This document shows positions 17,619 to 45,765 of a stretch of DNA of 64,000 bases, piece by piece. Each line of letters opens with the position of its first letter. The first letter of the stretch is position 1. Source of the stretch: Diphasiastrum complanatum (Eukaryota; Streptophyta; Lycopodiopsida; Lycopodiales; Lycopodiaceae); assembly GCA_029204225.1 (NCBI GenBank), contig CM055109.1, positions 3,810,733 to 3,874,732 of the forward strand. The letters run 5' to 3'. The position numbers and the translations under genes were made by a program. Below the pieces are notes generated by a model, which worked only from the letters and a program-made list of their open reading frames with translations, did no database searches and was not told the origin of the DNA.

Positions 17619-18489
17619 TATGTACATTCATGCATGAAGTTTGATCTCCATGAAGCAAGATCTTGAATGAAAATTCTAAGTTTGAGAGTGCTCTTGCATC
17701 CCAATTGTCTTCTAGCTTCAAATTGGCTAATGATTGTTTGTTTTGAGTGATTTCTTGGATCATATTGAGAATTTGATGTATGGAAAGTACAAGCCACATG
17801 TGAGTTGCATCCACTTTGAAATTTTGTAGCAAACTCATCTTTGATCCATTTAGCCCAAGTAGACATTTGTTGGAAAGAGCATCAAAGTGTAGACTGAGAA
17901 GACCAAGCCCTCAAGTGTTGTTGATGTATGGATCCAATGTTTGAGGGTAGGTAGGTGTACCCACCTGGTGTTTTCTAGATCTTTATGGTTGATTTTGAGT
18001 GTTATGTCAAGAGTTAGATTCATTGGTCTTTGTGGAGTCCAATAGGGGTGATTGGATTTGAATTTGATATGGTTTGGTGAAAATTTGTTGTGCTTTGATT
18101 TTGGTGATCAAGGCAAGGCCTAATTTTCAATTGGCTAGATTTTGGTGTGATGTGATTCCTATGTTTGTGATCTAATACTGGGATATAAACTCTCTTACAT
18201 CAGAGATTCCAATCTCAAAAGCTTCGTTCGCTTTGCTCTTGCTTCTATCTTTTTACCGGAACAAGAGTACACTAATACAAATATGGGATATCTGCTGAGA
18301 GCCCTAAATGGAGAGCCTATTGCCTTCAAACAGATTGCTTTTAAGCAATTCTATAAATTAGTAAAGATTAATCAGTTTTCCAGGCTGGGTTTGCAGATGG
18401 GTATTTTGTGTATGCATGCTGGTGTGCTAACAATGCAGGAAGACATCAGGATTGCACCAGTGCTGCCAGAGCTACCAATTTCACCAATG
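17619..18489 (+). other. Retrotransposon leader and unassigned sequence
   Basis: The first 500 bp look like a copia untranslated leader (T-rich, no ORF). From 18180 the sequence changes character. A 69-codon open stretch at 18283-18492 (repeat FKQIAFKQF) has no recognisable domain. Confidence 0.35.
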
Positions 18490-19055
18490 TAGAAAAATCA
18501 GCATCTACACACAATTTGAGATGCAAACACTAATAGAACTTGATCAAAATTGAATGAAATGATTATGTACTGTTGCTGTCCGTACAAAACCAACAAGCTA
18601 CTGTATTTCACACGTGTGGATCCAAAAATAACAAATATAGATCATTCTACACATAGAATTGCAAGCAATCACCAAGATAGTGCACCAATGGATAGTAGAA
18701 CCCAAGAGAACCATGTATAAGCATGAAATGAGATAGAGAAGAGAGAAGATGACTCTCTCCACGAGTTACATCCTTTTATAGCAGGTCCAAACCCTATTTG
18801 GCCACTTGGCTTTCCCACCAAAATGCTAACCCTACCAATTTTGGGTCTAGATTCAATGTACCCAACTTAATCAAATTGAATCTACTCAAACTCGCATTCT
18901 GTCTTTCCCACACTTTCAAAAAGTGTCTATTCAAATGAAATTCAGACTAATGAACTTTGAAAAGTCAACCTCTAAGTCTAAAACAAGTTTTGGCCTCAAT
19001 ATGCCAAATATGGAAATATTGCAAAATGTGATGAAACTAGTTGAATCTTTCACAC
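18490..19055 (-). mobile_element. 3' LTR of copia A (minus strand)
   Basis: Read on the minus strand it starts TGTGAAAGATTCAAC directly after a purine tract and the RNase H stop. It contains the GGGAAAGCCAAGTGGCCAAA, AAAGGATGT.AC and GTAGATGCTGATTTTTCTAC blocks found in the plus-strand LTRs at 33446-33850 and 43491-43895. A TATA-like TTATAAAAGGATG is shared. It holds a CACACGTGTGG palindrome at 18609-18619. The far end near 18490 is not exact. Confidence 0.75.
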
Positions 19056-19636
19056 TCCCTCTTCAACTAGTTTTAGCATAGACTTTGATAATACTCCAAG
19101 TGAAGTCCTATGCTTCATGAACAAGTCTTTTCCCAATGCTTTGGTGAAGATATCAGCTACACATTCCCTTGAAGACACATGTTGAAGCTCCACCTCCTTT
19201 GCAATGACGCGCTCCCTCACAAAATGATATTGTATCTCAATATGCTTGCTCCTAGCATGAAAGATAGGATTCGATGCCATTCTTTGGGCTGATTGATTGT
19301 CAAAAAAGATGATTGGGCTCTCTGAAAAATCCAGCAAGTGAAGATCCTTGATCATCCTTTTGATCCATACCATCTCCTTTGTACAATGTGTAAGAGCTTT
19401 GTACTCGGCCTCACTAGATGACAATGAGATAGTGGCTTGTTTCTTTGACATCCATGATATAGCTCCATCACCTATGAAAATACAATAAGCACTAATAAAT
19501 TTTCTATCCATTACATCTCCAGCATAGTCCGAATCTGAAAATCCAAAAATATTAGGTGATGATCCCTCATACAATATGCCAAAATCTCGAGTTCCAATGA
19601 TGTACCTCAAAACTCGCTTTCCTAGCTTCCAATGCT
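19050..19636 (-). pseudogene. Copia A RNase H domain
   Basis: The frame starts HWKLGKRVLRYIIG at about 19636 and runs open for 186 codons from 19610 to the stop at 19050. It shows GFSDSDYAGD, SLSSSEAEYKAL, FFDNQSA and HARSKHIEIQYHFVRE, so the catalytic Asp, Glu and Asp of copia RNase H are present. It ends with ADIFTKAL and LVEEGV, as copia pol usually does just before the PPT. The domain is well preserved, but it is out of frame with the upstream pol part. Confidence 0.93.
19056..19070 (-). promoter_or_regulatory. Polypurine tract of copia A
   Basis: On the minus strand the sequence GTTGAAGAGGGAG lies immediately before the LTR start, as expected for the primer of plus-strand DNA synthesis. 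Confidence 0.7.
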
Positions 19637-20704
19637 CCTAGCATAGTTTTTGCCAATAGAACTTTGATCCATCATAAGAATGATCTTCTTCTTAAGAATA
19701 GATCTCCTTTCAATGATCATGTAATGCTCAAAATAGAAACAACCATAATTGATATAGAGAATAGTGTCCACTTGGGATGCTTCACTATTTCTTACATCAA
19801 TTTTACATGTAAAAATGTCACTAGAACATGAAGAATCAAATAGAATGTAAATGAAATGATTCCACCATGCTTCCAACTCTGAACTCTCTGGAAAAATACA
19901 GCAAACAAATAATAAATGTGAGTGATCAACTTTTGCTTGCATGTCTCCTCCTCCTTTGTCCTTTGTTGCCTTGTATCCACCATGATACTCCATGAATGAG
20001 CCTCCATCTTCATCTTGCCATAAGAAACCATCAAACCTTGGAAATCCATGAGTAGGTGAGTATATAAATGATGCAAATCCAGCACCACATGACTCTATAA
20101 ACCAAGTAGTTTGCACTAGTCCATCTTCAAGATCTACTTGACACAAGAAAATGACCATGAATTCACCAAAAATTGACAATCTCCAAGTATTGGCACCAAG
20201 TAGCTCAACACTTGAGAACTTAGCCATGGATGAGTGACATAATGAACCTCCAATAGCTTCATTTCCATCAGCAAAATCAGCCAAGAATGCTAGTACAAAT
20301 CCAACATCAAAACAATACTCACCAATGTAGCTAGTTTTACCATATCTTGACAACCTGCACACATCCACATGAAATTGCTCAAACATGAGATAGAACAAGT
20401 AAAGTAAACTTGAACAACACTTACTTGCTGCTCCTTTGACCTTACTTGAGTCTTCAATATGCTGCAAAACCAGATCCATAACACCTTTGCCAATTACCTC
20501 TCCTTTGATGCTCTTGACTAGCTCCAAATTGCCAATTTCCCTTTTGACTAGTTGAAGCGCTTTGAGATTAACCTCTTGATCTTCAACTTGACCATCAAAG
20601 TCATTGAACAAAATTTGTTTTCCAGATCCATTACTTGATTTTACAGCAAGATAACATCCATCCACTTGCATAGCTCCATGTACACAAGAAGATCCTCCAA
20701 AAGA
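19637..20704 (-). other. Foreign open sequence in place of the copia RT domain
   Basis: A normal copia pol would have about 240 residues of RT and connection here. Instead there are about 356 stop-free codons, continuous with the integrase frame, without any RT motif (no TAFLNG, YVDD or GLKQ). The deduced segment is rich in Cys, Phe, Tyr and Ser and has hydrophobic stretches (LLYLFYLMFEQFHVDVC, GFVLAFLADFAD). I do not recognise it. Possible splice signals in the same orientation (GTAAGT with G at 20423 to TGTGCAG ending at 20355; GTGAGT with G at 20322 to TTTTTCCAG ending at 19888) would suit a captured genomic gene fragment, and both spacings are multiples of three. Confidence 0.6.
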
Positions 20705-21380
20705 TGTTCCACTCTTCATAAGAGATCGATACTCAAAATCCATTGCTTGGATCCACTCCTCTTCTTTCCTTGCTTGATCTACACTTGTAGGCTCATCCAA
20801 AGAGGTTAGGAAAGCAACATAATTTCCAGAAACTACTTGATTACCCTTTTGATCATATGTGAACCTTGAAGGTACTTGTCTTTCTCTTGATGTTCTCCTT
20901 GGCTTTTGACTTGATGAAGGTCCATCATCACCACCATCCAAAGTAGGATCCTTCTCATCAACATCAATAATGTTAGATCCATCTACTTTACCATCAATCA
21001 TGTTTGAAGACACCTTTGGAATGTTTCCCTCATAAAAAATGACATCTCTACCAACAATCACTTTGTTAGTAGAAGGAATGTAAACCTTGTAGGCTTTACT
21101 CACCTCACTATATCCAACAAAAATACCTCTTCTTGAAGATGGATCCTCATTGGTCCTATCATCAAGAGTAATGTGGACATAGCATGTGCATCCAAAGGTT
21201 CTTAGAAAGTTGACACTCGGCCTCCTCTTGAATAGCATCTGAAAAGGTGTCCTTCCATCCAAAATAGCACTCGGCCACCTATTGCACAAGAAATTGGCAC
21301 ACAACAAAGCTTGATCCCAAAATGGTTTGTCAAGATTAGCACTTAACCTCATAGCTTTAGCACTTTCACATAAAGATGGG
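20705..21380 (-). pseudogene. Copia A integrase C-terminus, linker and RT start
   Basis: The frame begins inside integrase (LCESAKAMRLSANLDKPFWD, NFLCNRWPS, RTFGCTCYVH, GIFVGYSEVSKAYKVY, VIVGRDVIFYE). It passes through the acidic linker and enters the RT N-terminus (FLTSLDEPTSVDQARKEEEW, MDFEYRSLMKSGT). Copia would continue with TW.LV, but here the frame enters the foreign segment. The element is cut at 21380, where unrelated sequence starts, so gag, protease and most of integrase are missing. Confidence 0.9.
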
Positions 21381-23057
<1,677 letters not shown>

Positions 23058-33059: not shown

Positions 33060-33445
33060 ATCTGAATCCATGAATGCTTTGACCTTCAAACTTAGTTCTG
33101 CACAAGATTTCTTATGTGCATCCAAGCTTAATGCTTTAGTAAAAATATTCGTTCTCACATCTTGCATTTCGACAGTACATCAAGTCAACCTCTTTGTTGA
33201 GAACTTTGCTTCTGACATAGTGATACTTAATTTCAATGTGCTTACTCCTAGAATGAAATCTAGGTTTGGCTGATAAAGCAATGGCACTTTGATTATCACA
33301 AAATAGAATTGTCGGAGCATATTGATTTAGACTGATATCTGAAAGTAAGTTTCTCAACCATATTGCTTCCTTTGTAGCTTGAGGATGTGATATACTCTGA
33401 TTTAGTGGAAGATAGAGCTATCGAAGTAGGGTTTACATTTTGGAG
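33060..33445 (-). pseudogene. Copia C RNase H end, copy 1
   Basis: The minus strand reads SLQNVNPTSIALSSTKSE (33445-33390), then RNLLSDISLNQYAPTILFCD and HSRSKHIEIKYHYVR, the copia RNase H C-terminal half with the second catalytic Asp (CDNQSA). A frameshift follows NEYFY. The N-terminal half is missing because sequence of LTR A starts at 33446. Confidence 0.9.
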
Positions 33446-33850
33446 GGAAAGCCAAGTGGCCAAATAGGGGTTGGACCTATTATAAAAGGATGTAACTCAT
33501 GGAGAGACACATCTTCTCTCTTCTCTCTCTCATTTCATCATTATACATGGTCCTCTTTGGGTTCTACTACTCATTGGTGCACTCTCTTGATGATATCTTG
33601 CAATTCTATGTGTAGAATGATCATTTATTGCTATTTGCGGTTCCAAACGTGCGAAATACAGTAGGGTACTATAATTGTACGGACAAAAACTATATTTTAT
33701 GTTTTGGTTTATGTTTGATCAATATCTCGTTTGCATCTCATTTTGTATGTAGATGCTGATTTTTCTACATTGGCAAGATTGTTGGTTTGCTTCTTTTTGT
33801 AAAGAAAGATCAGGGACATGGATTGGATCATGAATGATCTGAAATCCTTC
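33446..33850 (+). mobile_element. Copia A 5' LTR, 5'-truncated, copy 1
   Basis: It starts within the LTR at GGGAAAGCCAAGTGGCC and contains the TATA-like TATTATAAAAGGATG at about 33478. It ends before the PBS at 33854. It matches 43491-43893 and, in inverse, the LTR at 18490-19055. Confidence 0.8.
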
Positions 33851-33853
33851 ACA

Positions 33854-33865
33854 TGGTATTAGAGC
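33854..33865 (+). promoter_or_regulatory. Primer-binding site, mutated tRNA-Met type
   Basis: TGGTATTAGAGC differs by one base from TGGTATCAGAGC. The second copy at 43896 reads TGGTATTAAAGC. Confidence 0.75.
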
Positions 33866-34451
33866 TCTTGTGTTTCAGGTTATGAAAGGATCAGCCATCT
33901 TTAGCAAGGATTTGGAGGAGTTACCAATGCTGGAGCATGCTAGATTTATTTCTACTCAAAAATCAACATTTTTGCATATGTAAAATTGATCTTTTGTAGG
34001 CCAAAACTCAATATAGGTTTATATACTTGATCAATTCCAATTTCACACTTGGTTTACTAGAATTAGCCAATTTTTGGTGAAGTAGGAAGGTCTCATTGGA
34101 GGCTACAAGATAATATATCAAGTTTTTAGAAATTGCATGTAGAATTTGAGATATTCAATTTTTTGTGATTTTGTCAAAACCCTAATTTTGATTGAATCTA
34201 TAGTTTGTGAGGTTACTAAGCTTCATTTGAGTGTGTTTCAATCTTAGGAAGTGGCAAGAATCATTAGATTGAGGGTAGATCATTGGTTGATCAAGATTTC
34301 ACTATTCTATGTGTTGATTTTCTAGAAGTGCTAGAAGAGATTTGAGAGGTTCCATATCTTTGTGATTTCTTCTTGAGTTCATTTGTTGACATTCAAGAGA
34401 GTGCTTTGTGCATTGGAACAGGTTGAAAGAAGAATATCAGGTCATTGCAAC

Positions 34452-34733
34452 ATGGCTACAAGTGGCGGATTCATGTTGGAAGGCAATGATAAGCTTACCA
34501 CAATCAACTATTCTACTTGGAAGGTGAGGATGGAGTCCTTATTGGAGATGAATGAGTTTATGGAGATTGTTGCAGGTGTGGAGGAGAGACCTCAAGCACC
34601 TCAGGATCAAGTGAGGTATGACAAGAGAGCAAAGAAGGCTCTACACATGATTAAGATGAATGTTACCAATGAACTTCTCAAGGAAGTTGGTAAGTGCACA
34701 TCATCTTTGGAGGCTTGGGAAGTTTTTGTTGCT
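34452..34733 (+). pseudogene. Copia A gag N-terminus, interrupted, copy 1
   Basis: The ATG at 34452 (GCAACATGG) starts MATSGGFMLEGNDKL, then YSTWKVRMESLLEM, QVRYDKRAKKALHMIKMNV and LKEVGKCTSSLEAWE. This is the copia gag N-terminal (DUF4219/UBN2) series. It is broken after the codon for Glu at about 34731 by an antisense gypsy gag. The copy at 44487 is not broken at that point. The 590 bp between PBS and ATG is the leader. Confidence 0.9.
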
Positions 34734-37379: not shown

Positions 37380-37920
37380 CTTATGCTAACTTCTTATTGA
37401 ATAATGGTGGTGCTAAGTACTATGTAACCTTCATTGATGATCATTCTAGATATGTTTGGATTTAACTATTGTCTTGTAAATCTTTGGTATTTTATTCATT
37501 TGTAAACCTCAAAACTCTAGTTCAAAATCAACTTAGTACCAAGATCAAGGTATTAAGAAGTGATAATGGAGGAGAGTACATCTCCAATAAGTTGTTAGAG
37601 TTTTGTAGTTCTAATGACATTAAGAGGGAGTTATCTTGTCCTTATACCCCTCAACAAAATGGAGTGGTCGAGAGGAAAAATAGATCTCTTTGTGAGTTTT
37701 CTAAAGCTTTAAGACCAGATGCTTCTCTACCAAAACCATTTTCGAGTAAGACGATCACTTGTGCTAACTTCTTATGCAATAGATTGCCCAACCGAGCCAT
37801 TGGAGGAATCACACCATATGAAGCTCTATTTGGAGAAAAGCCAAATCTCAAGGATCTAAAGATATTTGGATCCACATGCTTATGTACCCCAATCCTTGGA
37901 TACAAGGAAGAAGGATGATG
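37380..37920 (+). pseudogene. Copia B integrase, copy 2
   Basis: NGGAKYYVTFIDDHSRYVW at about 37408 carries the second Asp-rich core segment. One stop (TAA near 37464) comes next, and then a 149-codon open frame: KIKVLRSDNGGEYISNKLLE, CPYTPQQNGVVERKNRSLCE, and ITPYEALFGEKPNLKDLKIF. The catalytic Asp (SDNGG) and Glu (VERKN) are visible. The frame ends GYKEEG at 37918 by a frameshift common to all three copies. Confidence 0.92.
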
Positions 37921-38990
37921 CAAGTTCCATCAAAGGCATCTTTGTGGGATATGGTGAGAATAGCAAAGGGTATAGAGTCTTCAATCCCATCACTAAAAAA
38001 GTCATAATGAGTAGGGATGTTATTTTTCGATGAAGGACATGCTTGTAAAGAGGATGATAATGCTATTAATCATCTTGATGTCAAAGACCATACTAGGATG
38101 GAGGAGGAGCTTCAAAGTGATCAAGGGCTTGAGGATCCACCTCAAGATCCAAGGACTCCAAGAAGATCCACAAGAGCAAGGGCTGACCATTGAGGCTCAC
38201 TTATGATGGAAAAAGTGATCAAAGGGAAGGTACTTCATATTTTACCTCATACACTTTCCTTACTTCAATGCTTGATGAACCAACTTATTATGAAGATGCT
38301 TGTAAATCAAAAAGTTGGATGAATGCTATGAAGTGGAGTATGATGCTCTCATGGAGAATCATACTTGGGATCTTGTTGATCTTCCTCAAGGAAAAAAATC
38401 AGATCATTAGCCTTGGTACTACTTTCAATTGGAAGCTATTTCAACTTGATGTTACAAATGCCTTCCTCAATGGCTACTTGGAGGAAGAGATCTACATGAG
38501 GCAACCTGAGGGCTTCATCAAGGAGGAGCATGAAAAAAAAGTGTTTTTTTCGAAAAAGAGTCTGTACGAGAGCATGGTACTCTAGGATAAACCCTTTCCT
38601 TATCTCCATCAACTTTGTTTTAACTTCTTATGATCCATCATTGTACATAATATTTCATGATGGAAAGATCATTATCCTTGTATTGTATGTTGATGACATT
38701 ATTTTAAGTGGAAATGATCTAGATAGAATAAGAGATGTAAAGATTGTGTTATCTAAAGAGTTTAAAACGGTAGATCTCAGACTATTGAACTGCATTCTAT
38801 AGAATAGAAGTCATAAGAGGATTGGATTTTAGATTTATATTTCAATCTAATTTGCTACATCCCTCCTATATAGATTTGGAATGAAGAATTGTAAAGACAT
38901 TATGACTCCAATGGAGCAACATCTATTGATGGTGATGAAGCATCCTTTGAGGACATCACTTTATATAGAAGGCTTATAGGCTCCTTAATC
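37921..38990 (+). pseudogene. Copia B linker and reverse transcriptase, copy 2
   Basis: In a shifted frame IKGIFVGYGENSKGYRVF is followed by an acidic linker (DPRTPRRSTRARA). The RT then begins with LTSMLDEPTYYEDACKSKSW. The segment normally holding ARLVAKGF is deleted, joining LPQGK directly to IISLGTTFNWKLFQLDVTNA and FLNGYLEEEIYMRQPEGF. The catalytic LYVDDI lies near 38690. The TD.G...Y.LGIEV segment is damaged around 38780-38850. Confidence 0.92.
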
Positions 38991-39585
38991 TATTTGACTA
39001 TAACTAGACCTGATAGTTCTAGTGTTGGAAAATTAAGCCAATTCATGCAAAGTCCTTTGGTATCACATTGGAAAATGGCCAAAAGAGTCCTAAGATACAT
39101 CTCATCAACTAGGACTTTTGGCATATTGTACAATGGGACTGATCTTGGCTTAAGAGCCTATAGTGACTTGGATTTTGTAGGTGACAAAGTGGATCGAAAG
39201 TCTACAAGTGCATTTGCTACTTTCTTATGTGATGGACTAGTATCATGCCTTTCCAGAAAGCAAGATACAATCTCCTTATCTTCCATAGAATCCGAGTATA
39301 AGGCCTTAACACCAACATGCAAGGAGGTCTTATGGATCACGAGGCTATTGGTGGAGCTTCATGTCATGGAGGAGGAGTGCCTACCATCTATTGTGACAAA
39401 CAATCAGCCCAATCACTTGCTACTAATCCTACATTCCATGCAAGGAGCATCACATCGAGATTGCTAATCATTTTGTGAGGGAGAGGGTGCAAGCCAAAGA
39501 GATCAAGCTCCAACATGTGTCTTCATCAAATTGCTTAGCTGATATATTCACTAAATCCTTGCCTAAGGATTAATTTGTTAAGCTA
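38991..39585 (+). pseudogene. Copia B RNase H, copy 2
   Basis: A 157-codon open frame from 38994: RPDSSSVGKLSQFMQSP, HWKMAKRVLRYISSTRTFGI, AYSDLDFVGDKVDRKSTSAF, SLSSIESEYKALTPTCKEV and TNNQPN. A frameshift near 39440 moves it to the tail IKLQHVSSSNCLADIFTKSL, ending about 39585. Active-site Asp and Glu are present, but the DNQSA Asp is changed to TNNQ. Confidence 0.92.
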
Positions 39586-39646
39586 AGATCTTCAGGGAGT
39601 AATTGATAAAAGTATCATAATCTCCAAAGCTAGATTTGAGGAGGAG

Positions 39647-41030
39647 TGTGAAAAATTGCCTATGTTGGCAAATCTAGCTATGTCAAATAATATAAATTAT
39701 GTACATAAGTGGGTCCCACACATGTAAGGCCATGGAGCCACATGGAAAAAATACCGTAGTGTAGGTTAGATCAAGTCTAAAGAGTAGGTCAAATCAATTT
39801 GGTAGTGATTCCTACTTTATAGGATCTAAATCCGAGATTTGTGGTGGAGATTGACCTACTAGCCACCTACTTGGCGTGACTGTAGGAATGAGGCTAGGTT
39901 GGCAAATTAGGACAAGAAAGCCAAGTTAACTTCCTTATTACATGCTGGAAATTCACCTAACTTTACAAAGGAAAAGGCTTTTCTATGTAGTAGACTCTCC
40001 TGACAACATTTCCAGAATTCACACATGTGGCTTAATTAAGCTTTGTGATTAGCACAATAACCTGATTCTAGATTGTTTAGCAAGATCTAGTTCAGAAGAA
40101 ATGGCTTAACCACAATCTAGCATGCTAAGCATCAGATTATGATAGCAATGAATCAAAGAATGAACAAAAGTACAAGATTTTAGTGTATTAGCATGAGCTT
40201 CAACACGAGTTAGAGAGAGAAAGCTAGAGAGATAACAAGCAAAATAGTTTAGATCCAAAATGGCATGAGGTAGCTACAAAAATTTGGTTCTTCATCATTG
40301 ATTGTGAGGAGAGCTACACATATTTATGGAGTTTGAGGTAGCTTGAGGTAGAACCACATCTATCCATTCCAAAATGACAACTCAAGTGACATCTAGAGTC
40401 TATGTGACATTTGTCACTTGCCATGCATGAAATTCTACCAACTTTTTACAAGTGTACTAGCTCTAACTAACAAAGTACAAATCATCATGCATGTGTCCAT
40501 TATACTTTGTGCATGCCTTGTATGTCACTATGTATCACTTACAATTAATGCATGTGAATTGCCATGAGTTTCTACAAGCATGAATTTGCCAATTCTATGT
40601 CTACAAACTATATGCAAGTTGTATTCTTCAAACTAGACATTACATAACCATGTAGCTCGAGTTCTATGTAGGCCAAACTTGGCATTTTCCATTTATGAGC
40701 TACATACTTGCATGGTACAACATTTGTAGCAAGCCAATAAATCAATATGATTTGCTTTTCCAATTTTAACATCTCCATAGTAAACACTTAGAATGTTTGA
40801 GAGCTTATTGGCAAAACTCATGTTTCTACTCTATGTACTTGATGTTTCTTGGATCTAAGCAAGATCAAAGTGAGTTACACTCTGTTTTCAATCTACAGGC
40901 CATACTATGTACTGTTCCACACGTGTGTGGGCTGTACTTTGCGTTTGATTAATAATTAAAGGTTGCTCTAAGACTTAATTGATTTATGCTAAAGTGTGTC
41001 TAGTTTGCATTGTTTTTGTGATCAATCACA
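39647..41030 (+). mobile_element. 3' LTR of copia B, copy 2, split by a solo LTR
   Basis: It starts TGTGAAAAATTGCC after GAGGAGGAG. Segments 39647-40000 and 40777-41030 are collinear with 24017-24625. The right end is cut at about 41030 by antisense gypsy G leader sequence. Confidence 0.88.
40001..40771. mobile_element. Solo LTR (family S) nested in the copia B LTR, with 5-bp TSD
   Basis: TGACAACATTTCC to CAATTTTAACA, 771 bp, flanked by TCTCC on both sides (39996-40000 and 40772-40776). The uninserted copia B LTR at about 24360 has a single TCTCC, so the insertion and its target are both visible. It entered after the host LTR was duplicated. Confidence 0.96.
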
Positions 41031-43091: not shown

Positions 43092-43490
43092 CCTTAATCT
43101 GAATCCATGAATGCTTTGGCCTTCAAACTTACTTCTGCACAAGATTTTTTATGTGCATCCAAGCTTAATGATTTAGTACAAATATTTGTTGTCATATCTT
43201 GCATTTCGACAGTATATCAAGTCAACCTCTTTGTTGATAACTTTGCTTCTGACATAGTGATACTTAATTTCAATGTGCTTACTCCTAGAATGAAATCTAG
43301 GTTTGGCTGATAAAGCAATGGCACTTTGATTCTTACAAAATAGAATTGTCGGAGCATATTGATTTAGACTGATATCTGAAAGCAAGTTTCTCAACCATAT
43401 TGCTTCCTTTGTAGCTTGAGAGGCTGTGATATATTCTGATTTAGTGGAAGATAGAGCTATCGAAGTAGGGTTTACATTTTGGAGGGAAAG
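43092..43490 (-). pseudogene. Copia C RNase H end, copy 2
   Basis: Open for 122 codons on the minus strand. LSLQNVNPTSIALSSTKSEY and TASQATKEAIWLRNLLSDIS precede ILFCKNQSAIAL (active-site Asp changed to Lys) and HSRSKHIEIKYHYVR. It is cut at 43490 at the same point as copy 1. Confidence 0.9.
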
Positions 43491-43895
43491 GGAAAGCCAA
43501 GTGGCCAAATAGGGTTTGGACCTATTATAAAAGGATGTCACTCATGGAGAGACACATCTCTCTGATCTCTCTCATTTCATCATTATACATGGTCCTCTTT
43601 GGGTTCTACTACTCATTGGTGCACTCTCTTGATAATATCTTGCAATTCTATGTGTAGAATGATCATGTATTGCTATTTTCGGTTCCACACGTGCAAAATA
43701 CAGTAGGATACTATAATGGTACGGACAAAAACTATATTTTATATTTTGGTTCATGTTTGATCAGTATCTCGTTTGCATCTCATTTTGTATGTAGATGCTG
43801 ATTTTTCTGCATTGGCAGGATTGTTGGTTTGCTCCTTTTTCTAAAGAAAGATCAGGGACATGAATTGGATCTTGAATGATCTGAAATCCTTCACA
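43491..43895 (+). mobile_element. Copia A 5' LTR, 5'-truncated, copy 2, with PBS at 43896-43907
   Basis: Collinear with 33446-33853, including the same chimeric left junction. It contains CACACGTG at 43686. The PBS has decayed to TGGTATTAAAGC. Confidence 0.8.
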
Positions 43896-44486
43896 TGGTA
43901 TTAAAGCCATTGAGTTTTAGGTTATGAAAGGATCGGCCATCTTTAGCAAGGATTTGGAGGAGTTACCAATGCTAGAGCATGCTATATTGATTTCTACCAA
44001 CATTTTTGCATATGTAGAATTGATCTTTTGTAGGTCAAAACTCAATATAGGTTTATATACTTGATCAATTCTGATTTCACACTTGGTTTACTGGAATTAG
44101 CCAATTTTTGGTGAAGTAGGAAGGTCTCATTGGAGGTTACAAGATCATATATCAAGTTTTTAGAAATTGCATGTAGAATTTGAGATATTCAATTTTTTGT
44201 GATCTTGTCAAAACCCTAATTTTGATTGAATCTCTAGTTTGTGAGGTTACTAAGCTTCATTTGAGTGTGTTTCAATCTTAGGAAGTGGCAAGAATCATTA
44301 GATTGAGGATAGATCATTGGTTGATCAAGATTTCACTATTCTATGTGTTGATTTTCTAGAAGTGCTAGAAGAGCTTTGAGAGGTTCCATATCTTTGTGAT
44401 TTCTTCTTGAGTTCATTTGTTGACATTCAAGAGAGTGCTTTGTACATTGGAACAGGTTGAAAGAAGAATATCAGGTCATTGCAACA

Positions 44487-45765
44487 TGGCTACAAGTGGT
44501 GGATTCATGTTGGAAGGCAATGATAGGCTTACCTCAATCAACTATTCTACTTGGAAGGTGAGGATGGAATCCTTATTGGAGATGAATGAGTTGATGGAGA
44601 TTGTTGCAGGTGTGGAGGAGAGACCTCAAGCACCTCAAGATCAAGTGAGGTATGACAAGAGAGCAAAGAAGGCTCTACACATGATTAAGATGAATGTTAC
44701 CAATGAGCTTCTCAAGGAAGTTGGTAAGTGCACATCATCTTTGGAGGCTTGGGAAGCTTTGAAGAAGCTTTATGAATCCAAGTCTACATCAAGAGAATGC
44801 CAACAACAAACAATCGGATCAAATGTAGTTGTAGAAACATCCCTAATTCAAGACATGGATGAAAGAGCGTTTATGATCAAAGATAAGAAAGCGCAAGTTG
44901 ATAATGCTTGGTTTCTCGATTCTGGGAGCTACTTAACATATCACCAATCATTGTGAACATTTTCAGTCATGTAGACCTTATAGTACAAAGAAATTCATTC
45001 ATCTTGGTGATGATAGTACTCACACTATCGAAGGTAAAGGCACTGTAAGATTGAGCTTCCAACTTTATCAATTTAATTTACTATCTAATATTTTGTATGT
45101 ACCTAAAATTTCAACAAATCTATTATCAGTAAACAAAATTATGGATTTAGGTTGTAGGGTATAATTTTAATATGATTAGTGTAGAATTGTTGATAGGACG
45201 AATAAGATCCTTGCACTCAAAAAGAGACATGTATACTTATATAGACTTATTTATTATTATCAAGCCTTGAATACTTCTATTTTAGTAAATAAAGCATTAC
45301 TTTGGCACTATAGACTAGGTCACTTCAATCATACGTACGTATCGAATATGTTTAGACATTTCTTAGTACTTGATCTAGATTATCTAGACAATAAAATCCT
45401 CCTCCATGTTTGTCATAGCTACATTGTTGGAAAAGCATACTAATATTCCCTTTAGATCAAGTCGTCATAAGCATGCAGCAAAAGATGTTCTAGATGTTGT
45501 TCATGCATATATATGTGGCCCAATGCAAACCTTATCTTTGGTTGGTGCAAAGCACTAACTACTTTTATCGATGAATTTTTGAGAAGAACAACTATTTATT
45601 TCAGTAAGCAGAAATTAGAGGCTTTCGACCTTTTCAAACAATTCAAGGAGCATGCAAGAACTCGAAATTGGTAAAAGAATCAAACCATTGAGGTCAAACA
45701 ATGGGAGAGAATATATCTCAACCGAATTCAAGGAGTATTGCCTTAGCAAAGCCATTGAGCTGTTG
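44487..45765 (+). pseudogene. Copia A gag-protease-integrase remnant, copy 2
   Basis: Gag starts at ATG 44487 (MATSGGFMLEGNDRL) and stays open to 44956, but the gag C-terminus with the zinc knuckle is deleted (STSRE joined to CQQQ). Protease follows: NAWFLDSGS, a 1-base frameshift, then FIHLGDDSTHTIEGKGTVRL and ILYVPKISTNLLSVNKIMDL to about 45160. Pre-integrase (LWHYRLGHFNHTYVSNM) lies at about 45300 and an integrase piece (IKPLRSNNGREYISTEFKEY) at 45670-45750. The sequence ends in a 23-bp word repeated at 46267. Confidence 0.85.

What the first reader, a model, noticed from the sequence alone, without database searches (positions are those of the whole stretch)
19637..20704. Copia pol with its RT domain replaced by about 356 open codons of unknown origin
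Integrase C-terminus and RT start run in frame into a stretch with no RT motif. RNase H resumes at 19636 with all its motifs. A 356-codon stop-free run is very unlikely by chance in AT-rich DNA, so the captured DNA was probably coding or had been selected in the element. Gene capture by LTR elements is known (maize Bs1, for example), but a swap that removes exactly the RT domain would be unusual. The element is truncated at 21380, so the whole structure is not visible here.
Basis: partly seen in the sequence, partly recalled or inferred. Interest (0 to 1): 0.75.

Follow-up and report, generated by a model that had tools for sequence, protein, structure and literature searches.

The report
Copia element with swapped-out reverse transcriptase
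In a clubmoss genome, a jumping gene lost exactly its copying enzyme by swapping in a stretch from another, already crippled jumping gene, and the mixed element still spread to a thousand or more places, presumably by borrowing the enzyme of intact relatives.

Summary
The window (Diphasiastrum complanatum, inferred from a shared contig length) carries a truncated Copia copy whose 1.07-kb open segment "X" stands exactly where the RT domain should be.

It is not a one-off. Complete ~6-kb elements with LTRs and target-site duplications exist, and the junctions occur at 1,818 (5', up to 2 mismatches) and 1,019 (3', up to 1) places. An RT-bearing sister (its 3' junction at 1,807 places) is 97% identical on both sides of the swap: 879 bp of RT out, 1,064 bp of X in.

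No host gene matched X. X matches the 3' end of a second family, B (1,711 places): Gag-protease elements without recognisable INT, RT or RNase H; two copies read have 99.85-100% identical LTRs. The exchange looks like template switching between co-packaged RNAs and left RNase H out of frame.

In the chimera X behaves as cargo: A-B dN/dS is 1.13 in X (gag 0.30, protease 0.23), and a stop in X is shared by independent insertions. In B a ~660-codon tail, part of it an eroded RT, stayed open. Whether that reflects protein function or selection for an open frame alone is unsettled. New variant of a known kind.

The parts
18472..19054 (-). 3' LTR of the copy, lacking its last ~68 bp
   Evidence: 96.7% identical over 583 bp to the 5' LTR of copy L009; copies with LTR pairs have ~650-bp LTRs
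19053..19637 (-). RNase H domain, uninterrupted but in another frame than integrase-X; ends at the polypurine tract (KLVEEGV codons)
   Evidence: 195-aa frame; Copia RT-RNase H profile 223 bits on the same domain of copy L015
19639..20704 (-). Segment X, in place of the RT domain; homologous to the 3' end of the open frame of family B
   Evidence: 40 of 40 scored genome matches at 98-100%, full length or within 3 bases of it
20705..21375 (-). Integrase C-terminal part, SH3-like domain and INT-RT linker up to the last residues shared with the RT-bearing sister
   Evidence: PF25597, E 2.9e-26; sister L043 is 97% identical to copy L009 up to the junction; copy truncated at 21375

Best explanation
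The segment is a piece of a second, non-autonomous Copia family (B) that replaced the RT domain of an otherwise ordinary Copia element (family A) through two template switches during reverse transcription of co-packaged RNAs. The chimera (A X+) keeps LTRs, primer site, polypurine tract, Gag, protease and integrase, has lost RT, and carries RNase H out of frame. It was then copied to a thousand or more places, which I infer used RT supplied in trans by RT-bearing family-A sisters. In the chimera X is passive cargo that is open because its source was open. In family B the source frame (Gag-protease followed by an eroded RT and X) was kept open over a long decay; my favoured but unproven reason is selection for an uninterrupted frame on the genomic RNA rather than for the protein. 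Shown: exact swap, copy numbers, shared junctions, homology to B, absence of RT, neutral-looking X in A, a transmitted stop. Inferred: template switching as the route, mobilisation in trans, and the reason B stays open.
For: Exact swap: RT-bearing sister L043 is 97.0% identical over 428 bp up to the 5' junction and 96.9% over 225 bp from the 3' junction, with an open RT (YVDD present) between. Junction counts: X 5' junction 1,818 (up to 2 mismatches), X 3' junction 1,019 (up to 1), RT-type 3' junction 1,807 (up to 1). 9 of 20 fetched X+ copies have LTR pairs of about 650 bp, 94.0-98.5% identical; 7 of the 10 copies in which both LTR ends were located have an exact 5-bp duplication. Pfam on the frame of L009: gag, CCHC (just under its cut-off), protease barrel, pre-integrase, integrase core, SH3, no RT. 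X in family B: 206 of 362 columns identical, L042 vs L015. Direction B to A: in B, X runs to the polypurine tract, and the last bases of X in A are the start of that tract-proximal motif, now followed by RNase H. Transfer later than the family split: dS of X 0.14 against gag 0.54 and protease 1.06. Short shared words at the switch points (ACATG 5', CTA/AG 3'). X not constrained in A: shared variants 26 N: 5 S: 2 stop, like private ones 75:17:7. A stop at L009 position 6588 is shared by L010 and L022, which have different target-site duplications.
Against: The B subfamily that donated X was not found: the 14 B copies compared are 81-88% identical in DNA to X of A over the main matching blocks, and L042 lacks about 58 codons of it. 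Only two RT-bearing family-A sisters were read, one internally deleted, and neither was seen with its LTRs. The microhomologies are short. Mobilisation in trans was not tested. The neutral-X evidence within A rests on few shared variants: X vs INT P = 0.04, X vs gag+PR+INT P = 0.06. The A copies were picked for similarity in X, and L015 and L042 for long frames. In B the L035 lineage against most young copies gives dN/dS 0.25-0.4 on few changes, so protein-level constraint in B is not excluded.
Confidence: 0.8

Rival explanations
1. X encodes a functional protein (in B, perhaps also in A) that is under selection, for example as an accessory or Gag-protease tail domain.
For: Open in many B copies: by my count 23 of the 150 rows have an uninterrupted frame of 1,088 codons or more. 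Within B, dN/dS is 0.25-0.4 between the L035 lineage and most young copies (0.69 in X against L042). Shared variants are 25 N: 13 S in the tail before X and 14 N: 10 S in X.
Against: A-B dN/dS in X is 1.13 on 122 changes. A stop in X is shared by independent A insertions. No relatives in about 5.8 billion proteins other than this genome's own gene model (none for the B tail). AlphaFold gives mean pLDDT 28.9, though from 4 sequences, so it says little. The B copies were picked as best protein matches to P0001, which biases X towards few amino-acid changes.
Confidence: 0.25
2. X is a captured host gene fragment, as in maize Bs1.
For: It has no significant similarity to RT or RNase H, and its ultimate origin before family B is not shown.
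Against: No protein match outside this genome for X (candidates of 196-623 aa) or for the B tail (about 366-1,163 aa, none at E <= 10). The donor in hand is a retrotransposon. The part of the B tail upstream of X is an eroded RT (hhalign P 2e-6, score 49.3 against at most 23.6 in 30 column-shuffled controls).
Confidence: 0.07
3. The structure is the sum of independent later deletions and insertions in single copies, or an assembly error.
For: The window copy itself is truncated at both ends.
Against: The same junctions occur at 1,019 (3') and 1,818 (5') places on many contigs, and copies with LTR pairs and target-site duplications carry the same structure.
Confidence: 0.01

Closest known systems
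Wheat RLG_Quinta / RLG_Cereba pair (PMC11302176, abstract and passages seen)
   Same: A non-autonomous family that encodes Gag plus an open domain of unknown function, lacks RT and INT, is proposed to be cross-mobilised by an autonomous partner, and has exchanged parts by recombination.
   Different: A different family from this Copia element (Gypsy by its RLG name, recalled code); no source is given there for the unknown domain in the passages seen. Family B here is the analogue, with part of its tail traceable to an eroded RT, and a piece of it then replaced the RT of another family.
Athila recombinant lineages of Arabidopsis (PMC2410132, abstract and two result sections read)
   Same: Recombination between families, among them pol-less ones, made new lineages; many non-autonomous copies keep intact frames.
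   Different: In Athila the retained frames (gag, env) are known genes under purifying selection, and one recombinant gained pol; here a recombinant lost RT and gained an unrecognised frame.
Barley BARE2 (PMC3735527, passages seen)
   Same: A Copia element defective in one essential gene that is packaged into virus-like particles and, in barley, outnumbers its partner.
   Different: BARE2 cannot express Gag; A X+ keeps gag, protease and integrase and lacks RT. Here RT-type 3' junctions are more frequent than X-type ones (1,807 vs 1,019).
Maize Bs1 (one passage in PMC7264820; further detail recalled)
   Same: An LTR element carrying foreign sequence.
   Different: Bs1 carries host gene sequences; X comes from another retrotransposon family.

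Membership tests
Ty1/Copia LTR retrotransposon, non-autonomous | LTR pair, 5-bp target-site duplication, tRNA primer site, polypurine tract | tested here: met
   LTRs ~650 bp in 9 of 20 fetched copies; exact TSD in 7 of 10 testable; TGGTATCAGAGC after the 5' LTR and a purine tract before the 3' LTR seen in 2 of 2 copies printed
Ty1/Copia LTR retrotransposon, non-autonomous | Copia order gag-protease-integrase-(RT)-RNase H | tested here: met
   Pfam domains in order in L009; RNase H downstream
Ty1/Copia LTR retrotransposon, non-autonomous | at least one enzyme missing | tested here: met
   No RT domain in the complete frame of L009; RT present in the sister L043
Ty1/Copia LTR retrotransposon, non-autonomous | mobilised in trans by an autonomous partner | not testable with these tools
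   Inferred from copy number without RT and from a 97% identical RT-bearing sister
Gene-capturing LTR element (Bs1-like) | inserted stretch derives from a host gene | tested here: not met
   Searches found no host-gene relative; the nearest source is retrotransposon family B. Absence from these databases, within the length limits of the search, is not proof.
Inter-family recombinant by template switching | two parents present, different histories for flanks and insert | tested here: met
   Flanks 97% to L043; X to B with dS 0.14 against 0.54-1.06 in gag and protease. The exact donor subfamily was not found.
Inter-family recombinant by template switching | junctions at short shared words | tested here: inconclusive
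   ACATG at the 5' and CTA/AG at the 3' junction, read by eye, no statistical test
TR-GAG class (name seen in search listing; definition recalled) | LTR element whose only coding domain is Gag | tested here: not met
   A X+ also has protease and integrase; family B also has the protease barrel domain

The most novel reading that the evidence does not exclude
Family B shows selection for an open reading frame as such: its protease is followed by some 660 codons, part of them an RT eroded below ordinary profile detection, that stay free of stops because an early stop would harm the element's RNA (for example through nonsense-mediated decay of a long 3' untranslated region), not because the protein does anything. 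Open domains of unknown function in other non-autonomous LTR families would then be frame-keeping stuffing, and such stuffing can move between families, as it did here.
Probability: 0.3. Interest if true: 0.75.

Novelty: new variant of a known kind. Interest (0 to 1): 0.5.

Why it matters
It gives a high-copy natural case in which one clean domain swap turned a full Copia element into an RT-less one that still spread, with the RT-bearing sister, a relative of the donor and the exact junctions in the same genome. It also gives a way to ask why non-autonomous retrotransposons keep long open frames with no recognisable domain: three outcomes (protein function, frame-only selection, mere recency) make different predictions in data that already exist.

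Tried and rejected
Host gene capture: two protein searches, no outside relative within their length limits. X as a disguised RT or RNase H: Pfam, a Copia RT-RNH profile (X -3.7 bits, shuffled maximum 6.0), pairwise and six-frame tests, profile-profile (X P 0.044, score 21.8, inside the shuffled range up to 23.3): not significant, although that best match falls at the expected place in RT. In one search one of 24 six-frame comparisons was low (minus-strand frame of B X vs RT, 5 of 200 shuffles), as expected from so many tests. The nucleotide alignment test was discarded: its gap costs gave inflated scores, and although X vs RT of L045 beat all 100 shuffles, so did control-like pairs (B tail vs gag/protease and vs integrase). 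PDB sequence search of the 612-aa frame: one irrelevant match, E 0.45. Structure of X: no confident fold, so no fold search was run. One apparent shared stop in the B tail proved to be two changes in one codon (TCA against GAA); the other stop there is real and private to L040.

Dropped before counts: of 20 fetched A copies, the 11 without a ~650-bp LTR pair were left out of the LTR figures; sites covered by fewer than 6 copies and variants private to L009 are kept apart; L040 was not used because its anchor peptide was not found.

Full report
WHAT IS THERE. On the minus strand the window holds a Copia copy running 21375-18472, truncated at both ends and 99.4% identical to copy L009 over 2,904 bp. 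The integrase end runs in frame into 356 open codons without any Pfam domain. Such a run is far beyond chance. RNase H follows, uninterrupted, but in another frame, with 13 nt of overlap (the same in 7 of the 9 copies listed).

WHERE IT COMES FROM. The genome has 1.74 Gb. Its second contig has the length (83,909,787) that the database gives for the contig of the only protein hit, O6H91_02G086300 of Diphasiastrum complanatum, so I take the window to be from this clubmoss.

A FAMILY, NOT AN ACCIDENT. The segment matched at 98-100% in 40 of 40 scored candidates, full length or within 3 bases of it, of 2,953 at first look. I fetched 20 longer copies. Nine have LTR pairs of about 650 bp, 94.0-98.5% identical, in elements of 5.87-6.04 kb. 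Exact 5-bp target-site duplications were found in 7 of the 10 copies in which both ends could be located. Two of the nine (L009, L015) have a single open frame of 1,192 and 1,190 codons from gag through protease and integrase to the end of X; the other seven are broken in various places. Pfam on L009 names gag, zinc knuckle (just under its cut-off), protease barrel, pre-integrase, integrase and SH3, no RT.

THE EXACT SWAP. A pattern for an RT-type end followed by this family's RNase H start found 2,428 places. Of the four read, L043 is 97.0% identical to copy L009 over 428 bp up to '...MKNGT', then has an open RT with its YVDD motif, then is 96.9% identical over 225 bp from 'EHWKLGKR' on. Thus 879 bp of RT are replaced by 1,064 bp of X. 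L044 is a family-A relative with an internal deletion; L045 and L046 belong to further families, about 80-81% identical in the RNase H start. Junction counts: X 5' junction 1,818 (up to 2 mismatches), X 3' junction 1,019 (up to 1), RT-type 3' junction 1,807 (up to 1).

THE DONOR. The database protein P0001 is an X relative that lies at the end of a second family, B (150 rows scored, 15,727 first-look candidates; 3' end pattern 1,711 places). Two B copies read in full, both chosen for their long frames, have LTRs 99.85% and 100% identical and frames of 1,088 and 1,145 codons. Pfam sees gag, zinc knuckle and protease barrel in both, no integrase, RT or RNase H. X of A and of B align over 362 columns with 206 identical residues, 86% identical in DNA over 289 aligned codons. 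In B, X runs in frame to the polypurine tract; in A its last bases are the beginning of that tract-proximal motif, now followed by RNase H. This gives the direction B to A. The switch points share short words (ACATG; CTA/AG), as expected of template switching. X has diverged less between the families (dS 0.14) than gag (0.54) or protease (1.06).

WHAT X DOES. Between A and B, dN/dS is 1.13 in X, 0.30 in gag and 0.23 in protease. Within A, 20 copies (19 fetched and the window) compared with L009: variants shared by copies are 26 N, 5 S and 2 stops in X, like private ones (75, 17, 7), against 27 N and 18 S in integrase (X vs integrase P 0.04, X vs gag+protease+integrase P 0.06). X has a stop in 8 of these 20 copies; one stop is shared by four: L010, L022 and the pair L011/L014, which share so many variants that I count them as one insertion duplicated with its surroundings. 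L010 and L022 have different target-site duplications, so stop-bearing X elements were copied. X is therefore cargo in A. Yet the 122 A-B differences contain no stop, where about 7% of variants in X within A make one (chance 2e-4); this is weakened because L015 and L042 were chosen for long frames.

THE B TAIL. The stretch before X in B aligns with Copia RT in order and frame: pairwise score 75 against RT of L045, 0 of 1,000 shuffles as high (highest 74; one of six such tests); profile-profile P 2.1e-6, probability 89%, score 49.3 against at most 23.6 in 30 column-shuffled controls. A plain profile search did not detect it (0.8 and 0.6 bits, below the shuffled maximum of 5.2). So an RT seems to have eroded while the frame stayed open. 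X begins with a piece like the integrase-RT linker of L045 (56 bp at 77%, E 6e-7; as protein 17 of 1,000 shuffles as high) and ends like the RNase H end (11 residues, 92 of 1,000 shuffles as high), so it sits where RT-RNase H would be, but its own descent from them is not shown. Within B, dN/dS is 0.25-0.4 between the L035 lineage and most young copies on few changes (0.69 in X against L042), and 0.6-1.1 for the older copy L047. Protein constraint in B is thus neither shown nor excluded.

LITERATURE. Recombination between families, pol-less ones included, is known in Athila (PMC2410132; abstract and two sections read). [quoted passage not shown] abstract and passages). Template switching as a route for exchange between wheat subfamilies is mentioned in PMC9744471 (passages). 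BARE2 RNA is packaged though it cannot make Gag (PMC3735527; passages). My searches (listings only, except the papers named) showed no report of an RT domain exchanged in this way nor of these Diphasiastrum families; the library lacks most subscription journals.

VERDICT. A real and clean inter-family domain swap, amplified to a thousand or more places: a new variant of a known kind. The open question with most promise is why the donor family keeps a long eroded frame open.

Noticed in passing
G000:C2:27311113 and G000:C2:27312006: An X-type 5' junction is followed 893 bp later by an RT-type 3' junction on the same strand, perhaps a second-round recombinant between X+ and RT+ elements.
   Followed up: no
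G000:C3:37144057-37144936 and C3:27422851-27423758: X+ copies whose two junction patterns start 879 and 907 bp apart instead of about 1,063 (as at C1:461464-462527), so X length variants seem to exist within the chimeric family.
   Followed up: no
L035 and L036, positions 621-722: Beside a B copy lies a short piece that joins an integrase-RT linker of another subfamily ('ALMENQT') to the first 102 bp of X (95% identical), between what look like repeated terminal sequences: the swap may also exist in a second subfamily, or in a miniature derivative.
   Followed up: partly
G000:C1:25526015, 25529104, 25532193, 25535282: Four B 3' ends at a regular spacing of 3,089 bp, which looks like a tandem array of a B segment.
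   Followed up: no
window 33426-34718 and 43465-44795: Two stretches about 78% identical to the LTR and leader of this family, next to RNase H remnants that are only 42-43% identical to it: related LTRs beside a different pol.
   Followed up: no
window 37403-39657, plus strand: An older, broken Copia pol that still shows RT motifs, about 52% identical in the first part of RNase H: a decayed RT-bearing relative in the same window.
   Followed up: partly
window 22090-22260: A perfect (GA)n array of 85.5 copies about 700 bp beyond the truncated end of the element.
   Followed up: no
G000:C922:5603-6670: A small contig carries X 100% identical to the window copy; possibly an alternative haplotype or unplaced duplicate of the same locus.
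   Followed up: no
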